Below, in pieces: positions 22,874-38,388 of a DNA stretch of 64,000 nt. Under the pieces are notes generated by a model, which saw only the letters and a program-made list of their open reading frames with translations, made no database searches and had not been told where the DNA came from. Numbering within the stretch: the first letter of the stretch is position 1; each line of letters begins with the position of its first letter. The stretch is taken from the NCBI GenBank assembly GCA_947306365.1, contig CAMZGD010000010.1:1-64000 (forward strand). Direction: 5' to 3'. The stretch comes from an uncultured Bacteroidales bacterium (GTDB taxonomy: Bacteria > Bacteroidota > Bacteroidia > Bacteroidales > UBA932). Position numbers and translations under genes: made by a program.

Positions 22874-24082
22874 TCAATATAATAGCCCGAACATCCAAAG
22901 CGGAATCCTGCCGTGAACGCCGATTTCTGTATCATCTACAGCTAAATAGCTGTCAGGAAGGTCTTTTATCTGCTCGAACGATTTTCTTGCACCGCCAACT
23001 TCAAAAATCCATTGTCCATCGACCAGGAAATCTCCGGAATGGGGGAGTTCCACGCGATGCCCACCGGATGCAACCTGGTTGAGGAAGAAAGTCTCACGGA
23101 TGTTTCCAATCTCGGTATGTGGCGCGAGAACGTTCATCAAATTGGGATTATCCAGAAAAATCTTATCGGGAGAGGCGAGTTGTTTGAGTGATCTCAAAGG
23201 TCTATGCATCAATCGAAGGAGGCCGGCTCGTTCCAGGGCCGACAGGATCTTGAGGCCCTGTTCCCGATTGGTCTGCAACTCACTGTAAAGTTGGGTCATC
23301 TTGGGCGTATAAGGGACCTGCGCAGAGAGGATCATCAGTAAGCGTTCGGCTTTCTGCAGGGTGTTATACTCCATATCTTCGATTGCAGGCAGATCGCGAT
23401 AGATGATTTGGTTGACAACTTCCTGAAGTCGCTGGTCAAATCCTTCCGGATCTTCTTTGTAAAATGGAAAATATCCGTACTTCTGGTACTGTTCGAAGGC
23501 GGGGAGAATCTTGACCAATGCTACAAAATCCGTAGCCAGCGAGGTGTGGTCATGCAGCAAGGATTCCAGAGGGATCGCGTCGATGCTGACAAGACCTTCA
23601 AAAGCCAGATATTCCCGAAAAGACAATCCGGGCAGTGTGTATTCCCTCAATCGGCGGGACAGATCCCCACCGGCGCGACTGAGTTGAAGCATGGAAGATC
23701 CGGTATAGACAATGTACAGGTCCGGATAGTCATCGTATAGGTTCTTTAACAGTGTCTGCCATTGTCCGTAGCGGTGGATTTCGTCCAGAAAGATATGGGT
23801 GCCCCCGTGCGTATAGTGATATTCCACTAACTCCTGGATGGGATGCGTTGCCAACCAGAGATTATCCATCGATACATAAAGCGCATTCGTCGATCCGGCG
23901 AATGCCTCTTTCATATGTTGGAGAATCAGCGTGGTCTTCCCAACGCCTTTGGGTCCTTTTATACCGATCAGTCGATTGCTCCAGTTGATGGTTGAATACA
24001 GAAATCGCTTGAAATCGAGTCTCGTACTTTCAACCTTCCTGCTAGAGGTCCTATAGATACCGGTTACTTCTTGACTATCCAC
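22874..24082 (-). CDS. AAA_14/DUF4143-type ATP-binding protein
   Basis: The product has 402 residues. GPKGVGKTT at 43-51 is the Walker A motif and THIFLDEIHRY from about 95 is Walker B; YTGSSMLQL at about 124 is a sensor-like motif. The C-terminal half (about 230-400) contains a winged-helix-like stretch and a nuclease-like end (PHSGDFLVDGQWIFEVGG) typical of the DUF4143 partner region. Such proteins are common and movable in Bacteroidetes; their biological role is not established. It has no obvious link to capsule synthesis, and its own promoter and an inverted repeat lie directly upstream. Base composition is intermediate. Confidence 0.85.
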   Translation of the reverse strand: MDSQEVTGIYRTSSRKVESTRLDFKRFLYSTINWSNRLIGIKGPKGVGKTTLILQHMKEAFAGSTNALYVSMDNLWLATHPIQELVEYHYTHGGTHIFLDEIHRYGQWQTLLKNLYDDYPDLYIVYTGSSMLQLSRAGGDLSRRLREYTLPGLSFREYLAFEGLVSIDAIPLESLLHDHTSLATDFVALVKILPAFEQYQKYGYFPFYKEDPEGFDQRLQEVVNQIIYRDLPAIEDMEYNTLQKAERLLMILSAQVPYTPKMTQLYSELQTNREQGLKILSALERAGLLRLMHRPLRSLKQLASPDKIFLDNPNLMNVLAPHTEIGNIRETFFLNQVASGGHRVELPHSGDFLVDGQWIFEVGGARKSFEQIKDLPDSYLAVDDTEIGVHGRIPLWMFGLLY

Positions 24083-28315: not shown

Positions 28316-29656
28316 CTATAGCCGATACAAATTCTTTTCTCCCAGATAAGATTCCTGCACCTGCGCCATATACAGATTCTCCTTCTTGGATACTTTAGAG
28401 AAGAATGCCCCTTGACCAAGAATGGCTGAAACAAAATCCTTGATTTCATACCGCAGGCCTTCTCCGGCGTATGGGTAGAAGTATTTCTTGTTCTGATTCT
28501 GATCTTCGTAACGGATTTCGAAAAAATCAGTCTTCCACCAAGGTGCGGGAACATAGGCATAACCTTTCGTTCCGGAAATCACCAGGCTCCCTTCCGATTT
28601 GACGCCAAGGCCGACCTGGAATGAAGCCACGGCGGAATCGTAGCGGAAAACGGCTTTGGTATAGATGTCTACGTCGTTCTTGATTTTGGAGTAGAAGTTG
28701 ATGTTGCGGTAGTCGGTTCCCAGGAGTTTGAAGATAGGGAGCAGTGGGAAGCAGGCATTTTCGCTCATACTTCCGCCGAAATACCGGCTGTCCAACTTCT
28801 GTGAGTTTTCATCGGTTAGGGTGGTGACAGAGGCGGTGACTTCGACAATCTCTCCGATCATGCCGGACTTAAGCAGTGTAACTAAGTGACCGAATGCCGG
28901 GCAGTAGGCTGTTTTCAAGGCGACCATCAGGACCAGGTTTTTGCTCTCGGCGATTTCATACAGTTCTTCTGCCTGGGAACGCTTGAACACGAACGGGGTT
29001 TCGCAAAGAACATGTTTTCCTGCGTTTAGCGCCGCCTTGGCGTATTCGTAGTGCGTAAAATGAGGTGAAGCAATATAGACTGCAGAGCAGTTCTGATAGA
29101 GTGCATCGAGCGATTTGGCAGCAACGGGGATCTCAAACTGATTGCAGAAAGCGCTGCATTCTTCTTGATCAGGATTATATGCCGCTGTGATGGGGATGCT
29201 ATTGACGAACTTCGACTCCGGAACGAAGCGTCGGGCGATGCTGCCGGTACCGATGATTCCAAGGGAAACGGTAGGTCGGTCCTGGCGCAGCTGCGTGCTG
29301 GAAATACCTTCTGTCCGCGGGAGATAAACAACCTGGCAATACTCCTTGAGATAGTCGAAATAACCCGTCCAGTCCGATCCGATGGCGAAAATGTCCACGC
29401 CGTATTTCTGGATATCGTCAATCTTTTGTCCTTTGTATTCTTCGATGACGATTTGGTCGACCAGTCCCGTGGCCTTTACGGCGGCAATGCGGTCCATCAC
29501 GTTGTCGCAGGTATTCATTTTTCCGCGCTCCAGGTCAAAGTTGTCGGTCGTCACGCCGACAATCAACCAGTCGCCAAGTTCCTTGGCGCGCTTAAGCAAG
29601 TTATAATGTCCCTGATGAAAGAGATCGAACGTTCCGTAGGTGATGACTTTTTTCAT
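28316..29656 (-). CDS. Fused cytidylyltransferase and Gfo/Idh/MocA oxidoreductase
   Basis: The product has 446 residues. Residues 1-125 are a TagD-like cytidylyltransferase: TYGTFDLFHQGHYNLL with the HxGH site at 14-17 and RTEGISST at 114-121. This group uses CTP and a small phosphate such as glycerol- or ethanolamine-phosphate. From about residue 130 a Gfo/Idh/MocA domain follows, with a dinucleotide-binding GIIGTGSIARRF (133-144). The usual EKP is replaced by ETP (VLCETPFVF), and the usual D-x-x-x-H site is replaced by SENACFPLL, so its catalysis may differ or be lost. With the aminotransferase and LicD genes nearby, it may prepare a CDP-activated small group for capsule decoration. The exact substrate is unknown. 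Confidence 0.88.
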   Translation of the reverse strand: MKKVITYGTFDLFHQGHYNLLKRAKELGDWLIVGVTTDNFDLERGKMNTCDNVMDRIAAVKATGLVDQIVIEEYKGQKIDDIQKYGVDIFAIGSDWTGYFDYLKEYCQVVYLPRTEGISSTQLRQDRPTVSLGIIGTGSIARRFVPESKFVNSIPITAAYNPDQEECSAFCNQFEIPVAAKSLDALYQNCSAVYIASPHFTHYEYAKAALNAGKHVLCETPFVFKRSQAEELYEIAESKNLVLMVALKTAYCPAFGHLVTLLKSGMIGEIVEVTASVTTLTDENSQKLDSRYFGGSMSENACFPLLPIFKLLGTDYRNINFYSKIKNDVDIYTKAVFRYDSAVASFQVGLGVKSEGSLVISGTKGYAYVPAPWWKTDFFEIRYEDQNQNKKYFYPYAGEGLRYEIKDFVSAILGQGAFFSKVSKKENLYMAQVQESYLGEKNLYRL

Positions 29657-29667
29657 AGCATGAAGAA

Positions 29668-30807
29668 TCAGTGGAGCGGATATGTCTGTTCAAGCCAGTT
29701 CCCAAAGAACCGGTCATAGATGATATAACCTTCGTCGGACTGATAAACGATTTCATCATCAATCAGGCGTTTGAGTGCGCTTTTTACACTGCTGGTGGCA
29801 GTGAGCCCGTATCTGGAGATAAAAGTTCCGGAAGTAATCTCTTTGACCATATGCTCGTTGGCAATGGCTTTCAGTAGATTTCCCTGCCCTTTGGAATATG
29901 CCCGGAGAAGTGTCTGATAATAATACTCGTTGTCATCCAGAATTTTACTGACAGCGCCCATAATCGCCGCTTCGTCAATCTCGCTTTCCGCCGTCTCAAA
30001 GAGTTTGTTCAGGACTTTCTGGATATACCAGGTGTGTCCGTCGTATTTTTGGTATAGGAAATGAAAAGCATTATCAGGCAGCTTGCGCCCCTGGTCTTCA
30101 AAGAAGCGTTGGGAGAACGTGCAATACGCCTGTTCGTCAATCGGCCCGATGGATTTATGGGTAGAACTCTGGTAGAAAGGTCGTTTGGGTGAGAGGAACA
30201 TCTCACTTAACATATGGGCCTTGCTGCCGGAGAAAATAAAATGCACATTATGGATATGCTGGATATGCGATCGAAGAAGGGCTTCGACATTCTTTTCGGG
30301 ATACTCGGCAATCTGCTGGAATTCGTCGAAAGCAATAAAACACTCTTTTCCAGACTGTTTCAGGTACTCAAAGACTTGGGAAATGGTATGTTCTTCATTA
30401 CCTGGAACATAATCCACCCCAATCTTGGGTTGCCCTGTCAATTCATCCACGGTCACGCTCGGGCGCAGCCCTTTCAGAACGGATGCGGCTTTTTTCAGGA
30501 TCTTCATGGGATTGGAATCCAGTTGTCCCAGCACGGACGATGCGAATGCTTTGGTAAAGGAAGCCAGATTCTCTGAAAAGAGCAAGTCGATATAGATGGT
30601 CTTATTCTGGGGGTAACGTTGGTTCAGTTGGTGGAACAAGTGCAGGATCAGACCTGTTTTCCCCATCCTTCTGGGGGATGTCAGCGTCACGTTCTGCCCA
30701 TTCTGAAGCGCAGACAGCAGTTCCTCGGTTTCTTTTGTCCGGTCACAGAAATACGCCGGAGATTCGTACCCGGAAACGATGAAAGGATTTTTGAGAAGCT
30801 CACCCAT
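29668..30807 (-). CDS. AAA-family ATP-binding protein (MNS/STAND-like)
   Basis: The start at ATG 30807 gives 379 residues. NPFIVSGYESPAYFCDR opens the protein, TSPRRMGKTGLI (about 43-54) is the P-loop, and ECFIAFDEFQQIAEYP holds Walker B. FIFSGSKAHML follows as sensor 1. The end (TATSSVKSALKRLIDDEI) looks like a winged helix that would bind DNA. Such ATPases are frequent, often single-gene cassettes in Bacteroidetes, with no settled role. It is not related closely to the other ATPase in this block. It has its own promoter and a palindrome upstream, so it looks like an insertion in the capsule operon rather than part of the pathway. Confidence 0.85.
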   Translation of the reverse strand: MGELLKNPFIVSGYESPAYFCDRTKETEELLSALQNGQNVTLTSPRRMGKTGLILHLFHQLNQRYPQNKTIYIDLLFSENLASFTKAFASSVLGQLDSNPMKILKKAASVLKGLRPSVTVDELTGQPKIGVDYVPGNEEHTISQVFEYLKQSGKECFIAFDEFQQIAEYPEKNVEALLRSHIQHIHNVHFIFSGSKAHMLSEMFLSPKRPFYQSSTHKSIGPIDEQAYCTFSQRFFEDQGRKLPDNAFHFLYQKYDGHTWYIQKVLNKLFETAESEIDEAAIMGAVSKILDDNEYYYQTLLRAYSKGQGNLLKAIANEHMVKEITSGTFISRYGLTATSSVKSALKRLIDDEIVYQSDEGYIIYDRFFGNWLEQTYPLH

Positions 30808-30823
30808 ATTTTGCGGTTTTATC

Positions 30824-30874
30824 GTTGCGTAAAATGCGCAACGCAAATATCGCAATTACTTTTGGTTTTACAAA
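30824..30874 (-). promoter_or_regulatory. Promoter with nested palindrome before the second ATPase gene
   Basis: On the - strand, TTTG (30871-30874), a 19-bp spacer and GATATTTG (30844-30851) match the Bacteroidetes -33/-7 arrangement with one mismatch in the -7 box. The -33 box lies at the very end of the upstream aminotransferase gene. A palindrome GTTGCG/CGCAAC (30824-30829 and 30837-30842) covers the expected start of transcription, and an outer TTGCG/CGCAA pair (30811-30815, 30851-30855) encloses it. This looks like an operator for self-regulation. Confidence 0.65.
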
Positions 30875-31923
30875 GCAAGTTTGCCCTCAAATTCGTGGAT
30901 TTGTGCTGCAAGTCGATCAAGGTCTTTGTCGCTTTGCAGTCCCATATGGGATACCCGATAGAAACCCGGGATGCCGCCGGGCATAATGTAGGTGTCGTAT
31001 TTATCAATCAGGCCTTTGAAAATGATGCGTTCGGCCGTGTCTTTGGTCTGGAATCCAGTAATCGCATAAGAGGGATTCTCGGCCGGGATATCCCAACCAT
31101 ATTGTTTGCACATAGCCCGAAAATGCAAGGCACGGTGATGCACGTCGGAGATGTTTTTGCCTTCGCCGCCCTCGCCAGTCAGTTGCTGAAGCCGGGCATG
31201 CAACTGAAGATATAGAATTGTGGCTGGGCTGAACGGAGTTTGACCACGCTTCAGATTTGAGAAGTTGTCGTCAAAATCCCAGTAATACCCTTTATGGTTG
31301 AAAGTGTAGCCATCGAGCTTCGGACTGAAGAACAGGATGGAGAGTCCCGGAGGGATGTTGAGGCCTTTCTGTGTGCTGGTAACGCAGATGTCGATGTCCA
31401 ATGCTCCCATATCCAATGGTTCCGCCAGAAAGGAACTGATGACGTCGACCACCAGCGAAATCTTATGCCGGTGGCAAATGTCGCTGATTCTCTGCAGGTC
31501 AAACAGCTGACCGGAGGACGTTTCGTGATGCTGGCACAGGAAAACGTCAGGGGCTTCTTTTGCTACAGTTTTCTCAAGTTCTTCGTAGTCGGTGTCTTTG
31601 GCGAAAGGCACTTTGAAGTCGAAGACAGGGATTCCATAGTATTCGCAAAGTTGGAACCAGCGATGGCCGAAAGAACCGCCGTCGACAACAAACGCTTTCT
31701 TTTTGGTGGAGACGTAATTTTCCACCACTGCGCTCATGGCGCCAGTACCGGATCCAGTATAGATGATCGTGCGTCCGTCCGTACAATGAATCAGATCAAG
31801 GAGCATATGCTCCGACTCCTTGTTGATCTGCGAAAAGGCATCGGTCCGCATATACATAAACGGTTCCGCGCCAATGGCCGCGATTCTAGGATTAATGTTG
31901 CCGGGGAATACGTAGGATTGCAT
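30868..31923 (-). CDS. Class V PLP-dependent aminotransferase (AGXT/PhnW-like)
   Basis: The start at ATG 31923 gives 351 residues. TGSGTGAM at 56-63 is the phosphate-binding loop, HETSSG at 133-138 corresponds to HGETSTG of the family, Asp160 lies in LVVDVISS, and STQKGLNIPPG carries the probable PLP lysine (about 186). The closest general types are alanine-glyoxylate, serine-pyruvate and 2-aminoethylphosphonate transaminases; sequence alone does not choose among them. It sits between a LicD gene and, beyond the ATPase cassette, the cytidylyltransferase fusion. An amination of a small phosphorylated or phosphonate compound before CDP-activation is my inference. No PEP mutase or phosphonopyruvate decarboxylase is present in the window. 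Confidence 0.85.
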   Translation of the reverse strand: MQSYVFPGNINPRIAAIGAEPFMYMRTDAFSQINKESEHMLLDLIHCTDGRTIIYTGSGTGAMSAVVENYVSTKKKAFVVDGGSFGHRWFQLCEYYGIPVFDFKVPFAKDTDYEELEKTVAKEAPDVFLCQHHETSSGQLFDLQRISDICHRHKISLVVDVISSFLAEPLDMGALDIDICVTSTQKGLNIPPGLSILFFSPKLDGYTFNHKGYYWDFDDNFSNLKRGQTPFSPATILYLQLHARLQQLTGEGGEGKNISDVHHRALHFRAMCKQYGWDIPAENPSYAITGFQTKDTAERIIFKGLIDKYDTYIMPGGIPGFYRVSHMGLQSDKDLDRLAAQIHEFEGKLAL

Positions 31924-31952
31924 GGAATAATTCAATAATAACTCAAATAAAA

Positions 31953-32780
31953 CTATTTCCAATATAGTGTCGCATGCCCATGTTTGGGCTGACGCTGGTC
32001 TATTGGCGGGAGTTGCATATAGTCGCCATAAATATTACGAAGGACTCGGTCGTATCCTTGCATAATTTTGAATGTTCGGCCTTCGAATTGAGCATCGATG
32101 GTTTGGCCGAAATCCTCAAGCAGCTGGTAGTTTCGTATACCGTCGTCCAAGACGGCGAGTTGCGACCAATGGTTAGTACTACCATAGGGTATTTTGAGCG
32201 CATTGCTCCGTACTATACGGTTGTTAAGGTCCAGTTGTTTTCGCCCTTGACCAGTAAGTTTGATGGCGGTTAGGATGAGCATGTCCTTAATTCCACAGGT
32301 TTTGAGAATGTCTCGATAAGAAGCCAAAGAGTATCGGTATCTGAGTTGCAGCATCCAGTTTTTTTTAACTAATCCGACATTTTGAGCAAAGATTTCTTTG
32401 TTGTCAGATACGCCGTCAGCTGGAAAGACATCCACCCAAACACCACCTTGATCATTTTTACCTATAGGCAAGATTGTTTTGCTTTTGGTATTAGCAGTAT
32501 CAAATACACGGCAATAGTTTAAGAAGTAATCAGAGTCCTTTTCAGAAGCAATCTCTAACCCTGGAGCGTGGAAGGATGTAACAAACCGATCATAATCTGG
32601 CCGGGGCATAATGATATCAATATCGTCGTCCCAGGGAATGAAGCCCCTGTGGCGAATGGCTCCGATAAGGGTTCCATAGGCGAGAGAATACTTGATCTCA
32701 TTGGCGATGCAGAAATCGTGGACGACTTGAAGGACTTCTAGACTTTGGGTTTGTATTTCTTTAAGGGTTAACCCATTCAT
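31953..32780 (-). CDS. LicD-family phosphotransferase (first of three)
   Basis: The product has 275 residues. YGTLIGAIRHRGFIPWDDDI at 35-54 is the LicD signature, followed by MPRPDYDRF. The family is known to pass phosphocholine or related groups from a CDP donor to surface sugars. The C-terminus ends in YGDYMQLPPIDQRQPKH, shared with the third LicD gene of this block. It lies 29 bp before the aminotransferase gene and probably on the same transcript. Which CDP-compound it uses is unknown; a CDP-choline pathway is not present here. Confidence 0.9.
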   Translation of the reverse strand: MNGLTLKEIQTQSLEVLQVVHDFCIANEIKYSLAYGTLIGAIRHRGFIPWDDDIDIIMPRPDYDRFVTSFHAPGLEIASEKDSDYFLNYCRVFDTANTKSKTILPIGKNDQGGVWVDVFPADGVSDNKEIFAQNVGLVKKNWMLQLRYRYSLASYRDILKTCGIKDMLILTAIKLTGQGRKQLDLNNRIVRSNALKIPYGSTNHWSQLAVLDDGIRNYQLLEDFGQTIDAQFEGRTFKIMQGYDRVLRNIYGDYMQLPPIDQRQPKHGHATLYWK

Positions 32781-32857
32781 AAAGTAGTAGGTATTCTTTG
32801 GTCAGTTTAATGGAAATCCTCTTTCCCAAAAGAGGGGAGGATTAAGGCTATTACTTA

Positions 32858-33759
32858 CTATATAGAGGAATGTCGTTCTTTGAACAACTTAAATAGCGAC
32901 CTAAACCCAACAACGGGCTGGCGAAGAATCCCCCTATATATTGCTTTGGACATGACAGGAATAATAATCTCTCTTATTGCCCGATATGCGGCTAAAAGAT
33001 ATTGACCTGTTAGGGTATCGGTCATCACCCGATTATATTCTTTCCCGAAAGCCGCCCTCTGGGCCTCCCAGGATCGAGTGGATTGATAGGTTTTCAAAGC
33101 ATCTATGTATTGTGTCCAAGCGTGCTCGTGTTTCCCATATACACACGTGATGTCAGGAATACCATGGATTATCCCTCTTTTTGCACAAGTAAGTAATAAA
33201 GGGCTATCACCAATAATTATTTCGGGGTAATTGTGGACTGTTTGTGAAAAATCTTTATATAGACTTGTTTTGAAAACAAATGATGCAGTAGGAGAGATCC
33301 ATTTCTCACAAAGCTGGACTTCGGTATAATTCTTTTCTTCAAATAGAGTAAAGATACTATCTTCATGGGCCCCGTCATACCAATGGATGATAGCATTCGT
33401 AAAACATAACGAACAATCTGGATGAGCCTCCATATAGTCTACCTGCTTCTGCAGTTTTAGCGGGTCTGTCCAGTAGTCATCACCTTCGCAAAGGGCAATG
33501 TATTTTCCTTGGGCCCGTGGAAATTGAATGTCAGCTTGTGGTACTGGTTCTCTGTTTCATAGATAGGCTTGATGAGGTGTGGATACTTAGCCTCATAATC
33601 TCGGATAATCTCTGCAGAGTTATCAGTTGATGCATCGTCATGGACAAGGATTTCAATCGGGAAATCCACTTGCTGCATTATAAACCCATCGAGCGCATTA
33701 CGGAGGAAAGGCCCATGGTTATAGACATCACATATAATACTTACCAATGAGTCACTCAT
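32858..33759 (-). pseudogene. Family 2 glycosyltransferase broken by a -1 frameshift
   Basis: The N-terminal part (33759 to about 33519) reads as a normal GT2 start: VSIICDVYNHGPFLRNALDG and LVHDDASTDNS. After FNF (residue 80) the frame runs into a stop at 33457. In the next frame the expected continuation is intact: PRAQGKYIALCEGDDYWTDP, with the family GDDYW site, then KLQKQVDYMEAHPD. One missing base at about 33519-33521, where GTGGAAA should read GTGGGAAA on the + strand, explains the break. The repaired protein would have about 301 residues. It could be a true pseudogene, a slippage switch, or a sequencing or assembly error. Confidence 0.85.
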
Positions 33760-33780
33760 AATTCAGCAAATCAATTGAAG

Positions 33781-34581
33781 CTATTTCCAATAAGATTTGG
33801 TGGCGTGTACCGAGTATCGCTTGTCCACTGGCGGCGGTGTCATATAGTTGGGACCGAAAGTTTCGGTAAGGGCCTTGGCGGAGTCGGCCGGGCAGCGGAA
33901 CTGCCGGTCTTCGAAGGGCATCAGGACGAAAGGCTCCAGGGCTTCCTTCGGGAGGAATACCTGATATTTGTAGTCGACCAGCGAGGAGACATATCCGCAC
34001 GCCTCATAGTCGTTGCTGGCGATATACTTGTCCTCAGCCTGCAGGATGTGCTGCAGGGAAACGAAAGGATGGATAACCTTTCCCAGCAGGGCCATGCAAC
34101 TCTTTTTGAATCCTGTGCTGCGTCCGATCTTGAACTTGCGGGTAAACCGCTGGTTGGCGGCCATGCTGCGGTAGAAGGCTACCTTCTTCATCATCTTGAC
34201 GCCCTCTTCGGGCGAATGGATGCCGTCGAGGATGAAAATGTCCACGAATACGCCCCAGTTCCCGTCACCGCCTTCTTCCTGGACAAAGGTGCGGACGTCG
34301 TGAACCTTGGCGAAGTCGAGCGGATAATCCTTGTCGGTCCATGCGGAAAGCACCTTGTAGTACGGGTGGTCGTATTCTCGGCAAAAGCGCTCATAGTCAG
34401 GGCGCGGCATCCAGATGTCGATATCGTCGTCCCAGGGAATGTAACCCTTATGGCGAACAGCGCCCAGCAGGGATCCGTATGACAGGTAATATCGCAGCCC
34501 TTTTTCATCACAGAACCGTTGAACGTCCTGCAGGATATCCATCATATGGATGCGGAAATCAGTGGGGGAAATAGGTGTCAT
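33781..34581 (-). CDS. LicD-family phosphotransferase (second of three)
   Basis: The start at ATG 34581 gives 266 residues. YGSLLGAVRHKGYIPWDDDI at 35-54 and the following MPRPDYERF are the family signature. The middle has GVFVDIFILDGI, again typical. The C-terminus (YMTPPPVDKRYSVH) differs from the other two LicD proteins, so it probably works on another acceptor or group. A pair of tandem palindromes lies in the 53-bp gap upstream. It is GC-richer than the broken glycosyltransferase gene next to it. Confidence 0.9.
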   Translation of the reverse strand: MTPISPTDFRIHMMDILQDVQRFCDEKGLRYYLSYGSLLGAVRHKGYIPWDDDIDIWMPRPDYERFCREYDHPYYKVLSAWTDKDYPLDFAKVHDVRTFVQEEGGDGNWGVFVDIFILDGIHSPEEGVKMMKKVAFYRSMAANQRFTRKFKIGRSTGFKKSCMALLGKVIHPFVSLQHILQAEDKYIASNDYEACGYVSSLVDYKYQVFLPKEALEPFVLMPFEDRQFRCPADSAKALTETFGPNYMTPPPVDKRYSVHATKSYWK

Positions 34582-34603
34582 ATAGTATATCTGGTTTGTA
34601 AAT

Positions 34604-34632
34604 TTACATAAATGTAATTTACATAAATGTAA
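34604..34632. repeat. Tandem 15-bp repeat with palindromic arms
   Basis: TTACAT-AA-ATGTAA occurs at 34604-34617 and again at 34619-34632. The arms TTACAT/ATGTAA are inverted repeats around an AA centre. The pair fills the gap between the GT8 gene and the second LicD gene. It looks like a double operator or a small AT-rich hairpin array. Confidence 0.75.
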
Positions 34633-34634
34633 AA

Positions 34635-35573
34635 TTATAGCGTTTTGCTTTTTTGATCGCGCGGATAACGGGCGACCATCTTCAGCCGTTTTACAAAGGA
34701 TGTCCTTTCCAGCAGGAAGGTTTCGTTTTCCCAGAAATCGTAGCAATGCTTTTCATCGAAGAAGATGGATTTGCGGTAGTAGAACCACCAGATGTCCATA
34801 TTCATACTGGCTTTCTTCCAGGGCTTGGCTCCGTTATAATGGACGATGCCGGTCGCTAGCGCGTGTTCGATCTCTTCTTCTCCGAAATAGCTGACCATTT
34901 TGTCCCGTTGGTTGACAATCAGGTTGTACAGATTGTTGGTGAGACAGAACGACGGACCGAGCGGAAGGATGCGGCCATTACAGACGATATTGATGATGGC
35001 CATATCCTGGTCGTAATAGTCGGTTTTGGCCGCTTCGCGGAAGCGGTCGCCCATCCGGTCTTTTCGCTGGAGTGCGGCATTGATGATCAGGTTCCCGGAA
35101 TAAAAGTAACCGTCGTCCGGATTGAGGCCGAGCGAAGAGACATACTGCTGCATGTCGGGACGGAGACGGACTCCGTTGTCCACGCCGGCAAAATAACAAT
35201 CCTTCAAGTCAATGTCATAGAATCTTCCAAGGTCTTCTCGGAAGACCACGTCCACATCCGAATAGATGATCTTGTCATATTCCTGTATCAATTCCGGTGC
35301 GAGAAGTCGATAATATGCAGTTTCCGGAATCCCACGGGTTTCATAAGCACCCTGGAACTCGTTCACGACTTTTCGGAAGGTTATGCGGCAGTTGGGATAC
35401 TTGTCGGCAATCTTCGGAAGAAGTGTATCTTCAAAATGACAAGTTGGACTGTGCAGGACAAAAATGTCATAGAAAGTATCCGATGAGGCATTCTCCAGCA
35501 GGGATGTAATGCAAACACCCGCAGCCAGCACCAGCTTTTCGTCGAAAGTAAACAGAACGGGGATGGTACGCAT
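34635..35573 (-). CDS. Glycosyltransferase family 8
   Basis: The start at ATG 35573 gives 312 residues. MRTIPVLFTFDEKLVLAAGV is the family opening, YSDVDVVF (DxD at about 106-108) is the metal site, and GYFYSGNLIINA and DQDMAIINIVCNG are the later GT8 motifs. IVHYNGAKPWKK near the end is also characteristic (HxxGxxKPW). These retaining enzymes commonly add galactose or glucose. It is soluble and probably acts on the lipid-linked unit. Confidence 0.92.
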   Translation of the reverse strand: MRTIPVLFTFDEKLVLAAGVCITSLLENASSDTFYDIFVLHSPTCHFEDTLLPKIADKYPNCRITFRKVVNEFQGAYETRGIPETAYYRLLAPELIQEYDKIIYSDVDVVFREDLGRFYDIDLKDCYFAGVDNGVRLRPDMQQYVSSLGLNPDDGYFYSGNLIINAALQRKDRMGDRFREAAKTDYYDQDMAIINIVCNGRILPLGPSFCLTNNLYNLIVNQRDKMVSYFGEEEIEHALATGIVHYNGAKPWKKASMNMDIWWFYYRKSIFFDEKHCYDFWENETFLLERTSFVKRLKMVARYPRDQKSKTL

Positions 35574-35587
35574 CTCGATTATTGTAA

Positions 35588-36541
35588 TCAAAGGGCTTTT
35601 CGGAAACCGACGAATTCGGACTTGAGCACTTGCTTCAATGATAACTGGTATTTCTTTCTGTCTCGAATCCAAGAAATGGCGTTTTTCAGGTGATTGACGG
35701 AAGAATCATCACGAATGATCATGCAAATGCTGTCGGAGAAATAACTCTTGAAACGAGCTTTTAAGATTTGCCGGTAAAGAGGGTCGGTCTCGTCAAAATC
35801 AGGGCATGTTTCCAAAAAGGATTGGAACCATTCCCGATAAGGAATGAAAGAATCGGCTTTCCCTTTGAGATTCAAAGTTGAATGGGTAATGCTCAATCGG
35901 TTCACCCGATACTGGAATCCGAATTCGTTGCTATTGGCGATGCCATTCCTTGAAGCCAAGAAGTAGACGGTTGCCTCTTCACTGCCCCAAGCATAAGGAA
36001 ACCAAATAAAGCCGCCAATCTCCTTTAGTTCCTTTGTGTCAAACAGATAGTCTCCTATCCAACTCTTTCTGCCTCCAGCACACCAGCGATGCCAAACCAT
36101 GGACAATGCGCTTTCCGCAGAAGGACGTCCTTCCTGTAGACTGAAAACGGAGGAATTTTCATCGATGATCTGAGTTCGGATATGAAAGACTTTGCAGTCG
36201 GGATTGTCTCGGGTCAATTTATTATATTTATCTAAACAGTCGGGGAGGAGTTTGTCATCATCGCCCAAACAGATAAAATACTCCCCGGAAGCATGTTTCA
36301 GACATTCATCCCAATTTCTGGAGACATTGAATTCTCCAAACCCCACGTCATTCTTAAAGTATTTGATTCTTGGGTCACTATGGTTACGGACAATGGAATC
36401 TATGTCCTCCGGCGAATGATCATTGACGATGATTAGCTCAAGATTAGGATAAGTCTGATTCAAGATGCTTGAAATGCATTCGTCTAAAAACGCGGCTTTG
36501 AAAGCCGGAATGGCGATTGTGTATTTTACTGTGTGTGACAT
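35588..36541 (-). CDS. Glycosyltransferase family 2
   Basis: The product has 317 residues. YTIAIPAFKAAFLDECISS and LIIVNDHSPEDIDS are the GT-A start, and GEYFICLGDDDKLLPD contains the acidic site (GDDD, 93-96). A WGSEEATVYFLA segment further on may hold the general base. No membrane segment is visible. The gene starts 13 bp after the GNAT-like gene. Donor and acceptor are unknown. Confidence 0.9.
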   Translation of the reverse strand: MSHTVKYTIAIPAFKAAFLDECISSILNQTYPNLELIIVNDHSPEDIDSIVRNHSDPRIKYFKNDVGFGEFNVSRNWDECLKHASGEYFICLGDDDKLLPDCLDKYNKLTRDNPDCKVFHIRTQIIDENSSVFSLQEGRPSAESALSMVWHRWCAGGRKSWIGDYLFDTKELKEIGGFIWFPYAWGSEEATVYFLASRNGIANSNEFGFQYRVNRLSITHSTLNLKGKADSFIPYREWFQSFLETCPDFDETDPLYRQILKARFKSYFSDSICMIIRDDSSVNHLKNAISWIRDRKKYQLSLKQVLKSEFVGFRKAL

Positions 36542-36554
36542 TACTCTGAAAACG

Positions 36555-37583
36555 TTATATACTATTAGGCTCCACTACAAAATCTTTGATGAAATAGCTC
36601 CGGCCGCCGAAGTCTTTTTTGTAGCGTTCGTTTCCACGGCTCATATCCAGCACCTTGATTTCTGTTTTTTCATGCAGGTACTTGATAAGTTCATTCATCA
36701 AGATGCGCCCGGGAGAGTAATAATCCAGCTCTTCATTGATGGCCAGACGCGTCATAGAGACTTTCTTCCCGTCGTGGGTCTTGTATCCGGATACGAAGGC
36801 CATGACTTTTTCTCCGCTCATAACAACGGCCAGGAAACTGTTGGGCAGTTTTCGGAAAGAACGGGTGTCGTGCTTCAGATATTGGAAAAGAATCCAATAA
36901 TAAGCACGCCAAAACTTGGATCCGTCGCGTCCCGGGTTGTATTTGGAGATCAGCCGCGTGATGTACATTTGGTTGATTTTCCTTTCTAACTCTTTGGGGA
37001 CCCTGTGTCCGGCATCATAGATATACAACTGCTGTGGAACGTTTTCCCGCTCTAAACGATTGTACGTCTTGTTAATCTGGTGCCGCATATTCTTCGACAC
37101 TGTCTGGAGATAGGCCTTATAATTCTCCTGCATGTCGATGGCCACATATTCCACGTCCCGGGAGAAAGATATGCGTTGGGCAGGGACTCCCTTGGCAAAC
37201 GGAGACTCAGACGGAATCCGGTTGAGGAACATCTTGGCTTTCATCGTGTCGAAGAAGAATCGGACAATCTCATCCTTTTCGTTTTCGAACAGTCCCTGTT
37301 TCCAAATCATATCCGCGATGTCGCAACCCTGCATATCGCCCAGCAGCGTATAGTATTTGAAGTCTATACGTAGTTTCATCGGGCAGATCATCAGGATGTC
37401 GTCGGAGTCAGCGGGACAAACGCAAAAGACGCGGGTGAAAAACGGCTTGAACCAGGTGACGGAGGTCTGGACGAACCGCATATAATCGTAGTGGAGGAAC
37501 GGAGACATTTCGGGCGTCTCCATAGACTTCCATATCGTTTCCAATGAATGAAAACGCTTTCGTATAAGGCGATACTTAATCAT
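36555..37583 (-). CDS. GNAT/FemAB-like acyltransferase
   Basis: The product has 342 residues. The C-terminal part shows a double-GNAT pattern: SFLAVVMSGEKVMAFVSGYK, then YYSPGRILMNELIKYL, and LDMSRGNERYKKDFGG at the end, all typical of the BioF2/CelD-like acetyltransferase group. The family transfers acetyl or aminoacyl groups to cell-envelope molecules. In this locus it could acylate an amino sugar or an amino group on the decoration added by LicD; this is inference. It overlaps the third LicD gene by 8 bp, which suggests a linked role. Confidence 0.8.
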   Translation of the reverse strand: MIKYRLIRKRFHSLETIWKSMETPEMSPFLHYDYMRFVQTSVTWFKPFFTRVFCVCPADSDDILMICPMKLRIDFKYYTLLGDMQGCDIADMIWKQGLFENEKDEIVRFFFDTMKAKMFLNRIPSESPFAKGVPAQRISFSRDVEYVAIDMQENYKAYLQTVSKNMRHQINKTYNRLERENVPQQLYIYDAGHRVPKELERKINQMYITRLISKYNPGRDGSKFWRAYYWILFQYLKHDTRSFRKLPNSFLAVVMSGEKVMAFVSGYKTHDGKKVSMTRLAINEELDYYSPGRILMNELIKYLHEKTEIKVLDMSRGNERYKKDFGGRSYFIKDFVVEPNSI

Positions 37584-38388
37584 TGTCCAAAAGATAGGCT
37601 TCGTAATGATGCGGGGTTACGCGCTGTTCTTCAGGAGGAAGCTGCATATAGTCGCCGAAAAGGCGACGAAGGTAGTCGTCGTAATGCGCAATTACGGGGT
37701 ATCGTTTTCCTTCGAATTCCAATTCTGTATAAGACTCAAACCATTCCCGGGGCATAAATTCGCGGATATCATCATCTCCAAAGTAAGCCCCGGCCAGCGG
37801 GGATTCCTCAAACGGGCAGGCGCGTAGATTGTCATTGATTTCCTTTTTGATGTCGGCGCAATTGCCTCGATGCGGGTAGCGAAGACGTTTCAGGCAATAC
37901 TTGACAAACCAACCCAGCCTGTTCTTGCCGACAACCTTGTAGAAAGGACAAAGACGGGATATCCATTCCCGTTTCCGGCACATCAGCGCATAGTGCTCTT
38001 CCAAACCTCCCTTTGGGGCTCCGTCAATGGGGAAGATATCAACATTGACGCCCCAAAGAGTTCGCCCAAGATCCAGATCGGTCATAATCGTATTCTTGCG
38101 ACATACTTTGGCGAATGTCTCCACGCAGACGTTGGACTGGGAAAGATCGAGTACTTCGTATTCTTCAGAATGAAAGGTCTTCACAAAACGGTCATAATCC
38201 GGCCGTGGCATCAGGAGGTCGATATCGTCGTCCCAGGGAATGAATCCCTGATGACGGACAGCACCGATCAGCGTGCCATATGCTAGGGAGTATCGAAGCC
38301 TTTTTTCCTTGCAAAAGGAAGAGATATTATTTAATAACGCTAGTTGTATTTGCTTAACCTGATCGTGGTTTAGGGATCTTGTGGCCAT
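37576..38388 (-). CDS. LicD-family phosphotransferase (third of three)
   Basis: The product has 270 residues. YGTLIGAVRHQGFIPWDDDI at 37-56 and MPRPDYDRF are the family signature, followed by GVNVDIFPIDGAPKGG. The end FGDYMQLPPEEQR resembles the first LicD protein more than the second. Overlap with the GNAT-like gene downstream is 8 bp. As with its relatives, a CDP-linked donor is expected; the donor is not known. Confidence 0.9.
   Translation of the reverse strand: MATRSLNHDQVKQIQLALLNNISSFCKEKRLRYSLAYGTLIGAVRHQGFIPWDDDIDLLMPRPDYDRFVKTFHSEEYEVLDLSQSNVCVETFAKVCRKNTIMTDLDLGRTLWGVNVDIFPIDGAPKGGLEEHYALMCRKREWISRLCPFYKVVGKNRLGWFVKYCLKRLRYPHRGNCADIKKEINDNLRACPFEESPLAGAYFGDDDIREFMPREWFESYTELEFEGKRYPVIAHYDDYLRRLFGDYMQLPPEEQRVTPHHYEAYLLDND

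What the first reader, a model, noticed from the sequence alone, without database searches (positions are those of the whole stretch)
28316..38388. Candidate pathway for a CDP-activated capsule decoration: fused cytidylyltransferase, aminotransferase and three LicD transferases
Within 10 kb the block holds a TagD-like cytidylyltransferase fused to an oxidoreductase domain, a class V aminotransferase, three LicD phosphotransferases and a GNAT/FemAB-like acyltransferase. LicD enzymes are known to need a CDP-linked donor, and TagD-like enzymes make CDP-linked small alcohols. A dehydrogenase plus transaminase pair could turn a small hydroxy-phosphate into an amino-phosphate (for example serinol-phosphate-like), or the aminotransferase could make an aminophosphonate. 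This would explain where the LicD proteins get a donor although no choline or phosphonate genes are seen. The particular combination, with the fusion, is not one I know as a described pathway.
Basis: partly seen in the sequence, partly recalled or inferred. Interest (0 to 1): 0.75.

Follow-up and report, generated by a model that had tools for sequence, protein, structure and literature searches.

The report
Likely CDP-amine pathway decorating bacterial capsules
Gut and rumen bacteria share a gene set that probably makes a small phosphate-bearing amine, attaches it to the carrier CDP and hangs it on surface sugars, which could give their capsule an unusual charged decoration.

Summary
The block is real: a TagD-type cytidylyltransferase (CT) fused to a Gfo/Idh/MocA domain, a class V aminotransferase (AT5), three LicD proteins and a FemAB/GNAT-like protein, on one strand of a polysaccharide locus. 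It recurs: Ruminococcus albus 7 has LicD-AT-fusion-LicD-GNAT-LicD. In two genome samples (295 and 341 genomes) 11 genomes, the window's included, have a strong AT5 homologue; in all 11 a nucleotidyltransferase lies in the same locus: the fusion (5), a standalone CT without oxidoreductase domain (4) or a LicC-like CT (2). None of 19 weaker class V homologues has a TagD, LicD or LicC type within 1.5 kb. I infer that AT5 makes an aminoalkyl phosphate, the CT makes its CDP ester and LicD transfers it. A phosphonate source is unlikely: 25 of 30 AT5-bearing genomes, the window's among them, show no PEP mutase. Serinol phosphate is my preferred product, ethanolamine phosphate second; neither is shown. 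New variant of a known kind; the chemistry is untested.

The parts
29282..29656 (-). Cytidylyltransferase (TagD superfamily) domain of the fusion, residues 1-125
   Evidence: PF01467 E 7.5e-19; TIGR01518 G3P cytidylyltransferase 121 bits, under its 165.4 cut-off; HxGH and RTEGISST kept, Arg63 of TagD replaced by Gly
28316..29269 (-). Gfo/Idh/MocA-type domain of the fusion, residues 130-446, without the EKP lysine and the active-site Tyr
   Evidence: PF01408 E 3.5e-24; residues read; AlphaFold model pLDDT 84 with Gfo/Idh folds as best matches
30868..31962 (-). Class V aminotransferase AT5 (true start probably inside the TTG-started ORF)
   Evidence: PF00266 E 1.2e-22; best solved relative 3f0h E 9e-56; PLP lysine position conserved in 33 of 34 aligned AT5 proteins, the other has a gap there
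31953..32780 (-). LicD phosphotransferase 1
   Evidence: PF04991 E 2.2e-41
33781..34746 (-). LicD phosphotransferase 2
   Evidence: PF04991 E 9.7e-44
37576..38388 (-). LicD phosphotransferase 3
   Evidence: PF04991 E 7.5e-43
36555..37583 (-). GNAT/FemAB-like acyltransferase
   Evidence: PF13480 E 1.3e-8
29668..30855 (-). ATPase_2 gene between AT5 and fusion, probably an insertion; not part of the pathway
   Evidence: PF01637 E 4.4e-13; in 17 of the 98 fusion loci AT5 starts 1.0-1.1 kb upstream of the fusion, i.e. directly before it
34635..35672 (-). GT8 glycosyltransferase
   Evidence: PF01501 E 4.8e-30
35588..36541 (-). GT2 glycosyltransferase
   Evidence: PF00535 E 9.6e-21
32858..33759 (-). 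GT2 glycosyltransferase broken into two ORFs (33457-33759 and 32858-33433)
   Evidence: PF00535 in the first piece only; the relative L045 has one ORF of 310 aa there

Best explanation
AT5 transaminates a small phosphorylated carbonyl compound (most likely dihydroxyacetone phosphate, giving serinol phosphate; glycolaldehyde phosphate giving ethanolamine phosphate is second). The CT domain of the fusion joins the product to CTP, giving a CDP-amino-alcohol. One or more of the three LicD enzymes move the aminoalkyl phosphate onto sugars of the polysaccharide built by this locus. The oxidoreductase domain in this branch is probably not a dehydrogenase of the pathway but a domain kept for structure or substrate binding. 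Shown: gene content, recurrence, residue losses, linkage. Inferred: every reaction, the substrate, the order of steps and the acceptor.
For: AT5 homologues were found in 6 of 295 order genomes, the window's included, and, as a clearly separate strong group (48-59%, E below 1e-100; the next match is 1.9e-48), in 5 of 341 Clostridia-class genomes. All 11 have a nucleotidyltransferase in the same locus: the fusion in 5, a standalone CT directly 3' of AT5 in 4 (one cut by a contig end), a LicC-like CT directly 3' in 2 (best solved match CTP:phosphocholine cytidylyltransferase 1jyk). A CT lies within 1.5 kb of AT5 in 9 of 11; of the 19 weaker class V matches, 0 have a TagD, LicD or LicC type within 1.5 kb. 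The one AT5-linked standalone CT that I compared with solved structures (L168) matches ethanolamine-phosphate CT best (3elb, E 2.7e-26; TagD 6.3e-22). LicD lies in 59 of 98 fusion loci, LicD or a TagF-like gene in 81. R. albus 7 has the same gene set. Beside the fusion the partner is AT class V, AT class I/II, SDR or none, with 12 changes of this state on the tree. Precedents: Cj1437 turns DHAP into (S)-serinol phosphate for a capsule, where it is then amide-linked, not CDP-activated (PMC11800397, passages); the LicD-family enzyme Mf1 uses CDP-choline and CDP-ethanolamine (PMC11982090, passages).
Against: No substrate is shown. The AT5 proteins fall in two groups only about 33% alike, so they may not share one. 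The locus nearest to the window by its fusion (L045, 83%) has no AT5 although most of its other genes match, so at least there the LicD proteins need another donor. G595 has AT5 and a LicC-like CT but no LicD in 13.5 kb. Loss of the EKP lysine is a single change on the tree, so its link with partner genes is one event, and three Lys-bearing fusions have a partner gene too (L112, L113, L116). A Gfo/Idh relative without that lysine can be active (biliverdin reductase; recalled). Two AT5 loci carry phosphonate genes (L057, L170).
Confidence: 0.52

Rival explanations
1. Ordinary CDP-glycerol decoration: the fused CT is a glycerol-3-phosphate cytidylyltransferase feeding LicD, and the aminotransferase serves another sugar.
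For: The CT domain is closest to TagD among solved structures (1coz, E 7.3e-36); TagF-like PF04464 genes lie in 41 of 98 fusion loci; in related CDP-alditol routes a reductase goes with the CT (PMC10918830).
Against: The domain misses the curated G3P cut-off (121 of 165.4 bits) while a TagD of the same order passes (L172, 205.5), and it lacks Arg63 of TagD. AT5 shares a locus with a CT of one of three kinds in 11 of 11 sampled genomes.
Confidence: 0.2
2. Aminophosphonate decoration: AT5 makes 2-aminoethylphosphonate and the fusion makes its CMP ester for LicD.
For: Best curated NCBIfam match of AT5 is the AEP aminotransferase model (TIGR03301, 141.6 bits). PEP mutase is found in 7 of 36 searched genomes or records with the fusion, and phosphonate genes stand in the locus in L057 and L170. 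CMP activation of AEP is known (PMC6697681, passages).
Against: AT5 is far under that model's cut-off of 360.8. PEP mutase is absent over the cut-off from the window genome and from 25 of 30 AT5-bearing genomes. Where phosphonate genes stand beside AT5 they bring a transaminase over the cut-off (L170, 380 bits) or an alcohol dehydrogenase (L057). Some genomes are incomplete, so single absences prove little.
Confidence: 0.08
3. Amino-sugar route: the Gfo/Idh domain and AT5 make a 3-amino sugar nucleotide, as GnnA and GnnB do, and the CT is only fused to it.
For: UDP-GlcNAc 3-dehydrogenase GnnA is among the structural matches of the fusion, and several Gfo/Idh relatives act on nucleotide sugars (KijD10).
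Against: Catalytic Lys and Tyr are missing; AT5 occurs with CTs and without the Gfo/Idh domain in 6 of 11 genomes; GnnB is a DegT-type enzyme (recalled), AT5 is class V.
Confidence: 0.05

Closest known systems
PntC-AEPT with LicD: phosphonate tailoring (PMC6697681, passages)
   Same: A cytidylyltransferase coupled with a class V aminotransferase, LicD in the neighbourhood, surface glycan as target
   Different: PntC is of the LicC fold (recalled; NTP_transf_3 in L170) and the route needs PEP mutase; here the CT is of the TagD kind, fused to a Gfo/Idh domain, and PEP mutase is mostly absent
CDP-6-D-glucitol synthesis of Campylobacter jejuni HS:5 (PMC10918830, abstract and passages)
   Same: A CT that activates a small sugar phosphate, paired with an oxidoreductase, for a capsule
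   Different: Unrelated CT family (PF01128), SDR-type reductase, separate proteins, no aminotransferase
Serinol phosphate route of C. jejuni (Cj1437; PMC11800397, passages)
   Same: Transamination of DHAP for capsule decoration
   Different: Serinol phosphate is amide-linked to glucuronate there; no CDP activation or LicD step is described in the passages seen
TagD/TarD glycerol-3-phosphate cytidylyltransferase
   Same: Same superfamily; HxGH and RTEGISxT motifs
   Different: Under the curated cut-off, Arg63 missing, fused to a second domain
Lic-1 phosphocholine pathway (LicA-LicC-LicD)
   Same: LicD transferase; two AT5 loci use a LicC-like CT
   Different: No choline kinase over the cut-off in the window genome; an aminotransferase in its place

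Membership tests
Glycerol-3-phosphate cytidylyltransferase (TagD, TIGR01518) | Score over the curated cut-off | tested here: not met
   121 bits against 165.4; a TagD of the same order, L172, reaches 205.5
Glycerol-3-phosphate cytidylyltransferase (TagD, TIGR01518) | HxGH and RTEGISTT motifs of the superfamily | tested here: met
   HQGH and RTEGISST in the window
Gfo/Idh/MocA oxidoreductase | Fold and cofactor motif GxGxxG/A | tested here: met
   PF01408, GIIGTGSI, model
Gfo/Idh/MocA oxidoreductase | EKP lysine and active-site Tyr (roles recalled) | tested here: not met
   ETP and Phe in the window; 21 of 97 relatives keep the Lys
2-aminoethylphosphonate aminotransferase (TIGR03301) | Score over the curated cut-off | tested here: not met
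   141.6 bits against 360.8
Phosphonate tailoring pathway | PEP mutase in the genome | tested here: not met
   None over the cut-off in the window genome, 86.9% complete
Lic-1 phosphocholine pathway | Choline kinase | tested here: not met
   One match of 21.5 bits, under the 29-bit cut-off
LicD family | PF04991 cut-off and WDDDID motif | tested here: met
   142.8, 150.6 and 147.7 bits against 22.6; motif
Serinol-phosphate-forming DHAP aminotransferase | Turnover of DHAP with an amino donor | not testable with these tools
   Needs an enzyme assay

The most novel reading that the evidence does not exclude
A modular, undescribed route to a CDP-linked amino-alcohol (CDP-serinol) for zwitterionic capsules, spread over Bacteroidales, Fibrobacter and Clostridia, in which an aminotransferase is joined with one of three different kinds of cytidylyltransferase, and in which a fused oxidoreductase was retired to a non-catalytic role once partner enzymes took over its carbonyl chemistry.
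Probability: 0.3. Interest if true: 0.78.

Novelty: new variant of a known kind. Interest (0 to 1): 0.6.

Why it matters
Where a genome has LicD proteins but no choline or phosphonate genes, their donor is a guess. The linkage found here gives a short list of donors that can be tested with two purified enzymes. An amine-bearing phosphodiester would make the polysaccharide zwitterionic, a property tied to immune effects of a Bacteroides fragilis capsule (recalled; that zwitterionic glycan modifications such as phosphoethanolamine interact with the mammalian immune system is stated in the abstract of PMC11982090). The fusion family also looks like a case of an enzyme domain that lost its catalytic residues while its C-terminal block stayed conserved.

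Tried and rejected
Aminophosphonate origin: tested by PEP mutase searches and neighbours; rejected as the main reading. Plain glycerol-3-phosphate cytidylyltransferase: cut-off and motif comparison; lowered. Correlated loss of Lys and gain of partner genes: 71 of 74 fusions with a near partner lack Lys and 18 of 23 without keep it (of 98 fusions one, L136, was left out as too short), but the tree has a single change of Lys, the independent-pairs test could not decide, and I do not claim correlated evolution. The five fusions without near partner and without Lys were looked at again: in four a partner lies further off in the same locus (L035, L048, L086, L096), L069 stayed unresolved.

The 568 relatives reported are not counted as fusions: the patterns also fit standalone CTs, and only the best 80 were looked at. 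The genome search scores at most five or six candidates a genome in these protein searches, so its counts are lower bounds (the Lachnospiraceae genome G323 was missed and found). The split into 5 strong and 19 weak matches was made after seeing the gap; profile scores show the same split (446-565 bits against 195-224). My first gene caller picked antisense ORFs in some loci; the counts come from six-frame profile hits. AT5-bearing genomes given to the PEP mutase search were 30 of the 33 whole genomes behind the 34 AT5 loci; L137, L138 and L139 were not given. The place of the conserved WW block in the model was not examined.

Literature: ten searches listed no paper that I recognised as describing this gene set; I opened eight papers, each as passages only, one with its outline and abstract. 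'CDP-serinol' is in 0 papers of that library. The paper on CDP-2-glycerol in Streptococcus pneumoniae is not held, so whether its Gtp enzymes resemble the fusion is untested.
Full report
Observation. The genes lie on the minus strand, nearly end to end. The fusion has a CTP_transf_like domain (residues 5-125) and a Gfo/Idh/MocA domain (from 132). The ORF of the class V aminotransferase (AT5) overlaps that of LicD1 by 10 bases. The surroundings are those of a polysaccharide locus: GT2, GT4-type and GT8 glycosyltransferases, three acyltransferase-3 genes and a GtrA gene beside a GT2 gene; the labels flippase, polymerase and Gmd/Fcl are mine by appearance (no Pfam match, or not scanned). The window genome has four LicD genes, three of them here; 12 of 99 genomes of the order, the window's included, have any.

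Recurrence. With the fusion as query, 6 of 295 genomes of the order, the window's included, have it full length. A scan of genome contigs with six fusions found at least 568 stretches that encode a relative (this can include standalone CTs); the best 80 were kept as loci, from Bacteroidales, Fibrobacter, Lachnospiraceae, a Treponema and a Selenomonadaceae bin by record title. In Clostridia-class genomes 10 of 341 have a match at E 1e-60 or better. I examined 98 fusion loci: the window, five other order genomes, the 80 contigs, the R. albus plasmid and 11 stretches of 10 Clostridia-class genomes; some are cut short by contig ends. LicD is in 59, a TagF-like PF04464 gene in 41, either in 81, AT5 in 34, a class I/II aminotransferase in 8, an SDR in 44. 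In the order sample 5 of 6 loci have LicD and the sixth has TagF. Ruminococcus albus 7 plasmid pRUMAL01 carries LicD, aminotransferase class V, fusion, LicD, GNAT, LicD in that order, at 48% identity of the fusion.

The aminotransferase goes with a cytidylyltransferase, not with the oxidoreductase. I searched the window AT5 in the same 295 order genomes: 6 have it at E 1e-25 or better. Two of these, the window's and G120, have the fusion in the locus. In the other four AT5 is followed directly by a standalone CT without oxidoreductase domain; in three of them LicD or TagF is in the fetched stretch, the fourth is a 3.7-kb contig that ends within the CT. As a second test I searched AT5 of L116 in 341 Clostridia-class genomes: 5 strong matches (48-59%, E below 1e-100) and 19 weak ones (30-33%, E 1e-41 to 2e-48). 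Of the strong five, three have the fusion in the locus. In two AT5 is directly followed by a LicC-like nucleotidyltransferase, whose best solved relative is CTP:phosphocholine cytidylyltransferase (E 5e-17 and 3e-9); one of these, G475, has LicD directly before AT5, the other, G595, has none in 13.5 kb. Within 1.5 kb of AT5 a CT lies in 9 of the 11 cases (in G120 and G469 the fusion starts 5.7 and 3.4 kb after the start of AT5), and a TagD, LicD or LicC type in 0 of the 19 weak ones. So the constant pair is aminotransferase plus cytidylyltransferase, with the kind of the latter exchanged. The one AT5-linked standalone CT compared with solved structures (L168) is closest to ethanolamine-phosphate CT. 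This points to an aminoalkyl phosphate as the compound that is activated.

Partner exchange. Near the fusion the partner is AT5, a HisC-like aminotransferase, an SDR or none; among 97 fusions none has two kinds within the near range, and this four-state trait changes 12 times on the tree. An SDR beside a standalone CT also exists (L171). Transaminase and reductase act on the same kind of group, so a shared carbonyl intermediate is the simplest reading (inference).

The oxidoreductase domain. In the window the EKP lysine is Thr and the active-site Tyr is Phe. Of 97 aligned fusions 21 keep the Lys; six, each with an aminotransferase near, have also lost the cofactor motif. Lys changes once on the tree, so this is one old event with later losses of Tyr and of the cofactor motif. 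In four groups that cover 70 of the 76 Lys-less fusions the block 353-408 with the invariant WW is 84-88% identical, about as much as the CT domain (79-91%), while the Rossmann part is 44-62%; in the 21 Lys-bearing ones the figures are 61, 71 and 53%. The model (pLDDT 84) is nearest to KijD10, 4had and 3e9m; the KijD10 entries include K102 and Y186 mutants, which may be the two positions replaced here (not aligned). I read this as a domain kept for structure or substrate binding. It could still be active: biliverdin reductase, a relative, also lacks that lysine (recalled).

Not choline, probably not phosphonate, probably not glycerol. No PEP mutase over the cut-off is found in the window genome. 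Of 36 genomes or records searched, 7 have it; of the 30 whole genomes with AT5 in the fusion locus, the window's among them, 25 do not. Two AT5 loci carry phosphonate genes, but these bring their own transaminase (L170, TIGR03301 380 bits against a cut-off of 360.8) or a PsrA-like alcohol dehydrogenase (L057; 139 bits, under its cut-off). No choline kinase passes the cut-off. The CT fails the TagD cut-off and lacks Arg63 of TagD. A further TagD-like CT of the genome lies about 9 kb from the fourth LicD on contig C18 and also fails the cut-off; I cannot exclude that it supplies a donor to the LicD proteins of the window.

Mechanism and its support. Most likely DHAP is transaminated to serinol phosphate, activated to CDP-serinol and transferred by LicD. 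Precedents for the first step: Cj1437 in the C. jejuni capsule, where the product is then amide-linked (PMC11800397, passages); human PSAT1, very slowly (PMC9283133, passages; class V by recall); RtxA of Bradyrhizobium (PMC3222319, passages). Mf1, whose family model is the only NCBIfam match of the first two LicD proteins (88.4 and 93 bits, under the cut-off of 225; the third was not scanned there), transfers phosphocholine and phosphoethanolamine from CDP donors (PMC11982090, passages with abstract). Activation first and modification second, as from CDP-6-fructose to CDP-6-glucitol (PMC10918830, abstract and passages), is also possible. Ethanolamine phosphate from glycolaldehyde phosphate is the second candidate. 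I put the pathway logic at about 0.5 and serinol itself at about 0.3.

Verdict. The kind of system is known (CDP donor plus LicD); the combination and the modular linkage were not found in the papers that I could search (ten searches, listed in Tried and rejected).

Noticed in passing
window 22874-24082 and 29668-30855: Two AAA ATPase genes (AAA_14; ATPase_2) stand in the polysaccharide locus; homologues of the second were found in 3 of 85 other fusion loci. Probably hitchhiking genes.
   Followed up: partly
window 32858-33759: A GT2 glycosyltransferase is split into two ORFs where the relative L045 has one ORF; real break or assembly error not decided.
   Followed up: partly
L045 1-19151: Nearest relative of the locus (72-88% for most shared genes; GT8 56%, one GT4 57%, LicD3 48%, FemAB-like 39%); it lacks AT5 and LicD1 and has a DegT aminotransferase, a hexapeptide acyltransferase, an SDR and a KAS III-like gene instead.
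   Followed up: partly
L057 13229-17496: One protein joins NTP_transf_3, a TagD-like CT domain and PEP mutase, followed by phosphonopyruvate decarboxylase and a PsrA-like alcohol dehydrogenase, beside fusion, AT5 and LicD: perhaps a hydroxyethylphosphonate set.
   Followed up: partly
L109, L118, L120, L157, L158, L159, L160: 7 of the 21 Lys-bearing fusions have a glycerophosphodiester phosphodiesterase (GDPD) gene starting 1.3-3.1 kb after the fusion start; L117, L159 and L160 have a second, standalone Gfo/Idh copy directly after the fusion.
   Followed up: no
MT836586.1, MT837690.1, MT837899.1 (phages collection): Three records named Bacteriophage sp. from human faeces encode relatives that cover 92-98% of the fusion; they may be bacterial DNA in a virome.
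   Followed up: no
G000 contig C18: L178 7459-7884 and 16517-17392: A second TagD-like cytidylyltransferase and the fourth LicD lie about 9 kb apart, perhaps a second CDP-donor locus of this genome.
   Followed up: partly
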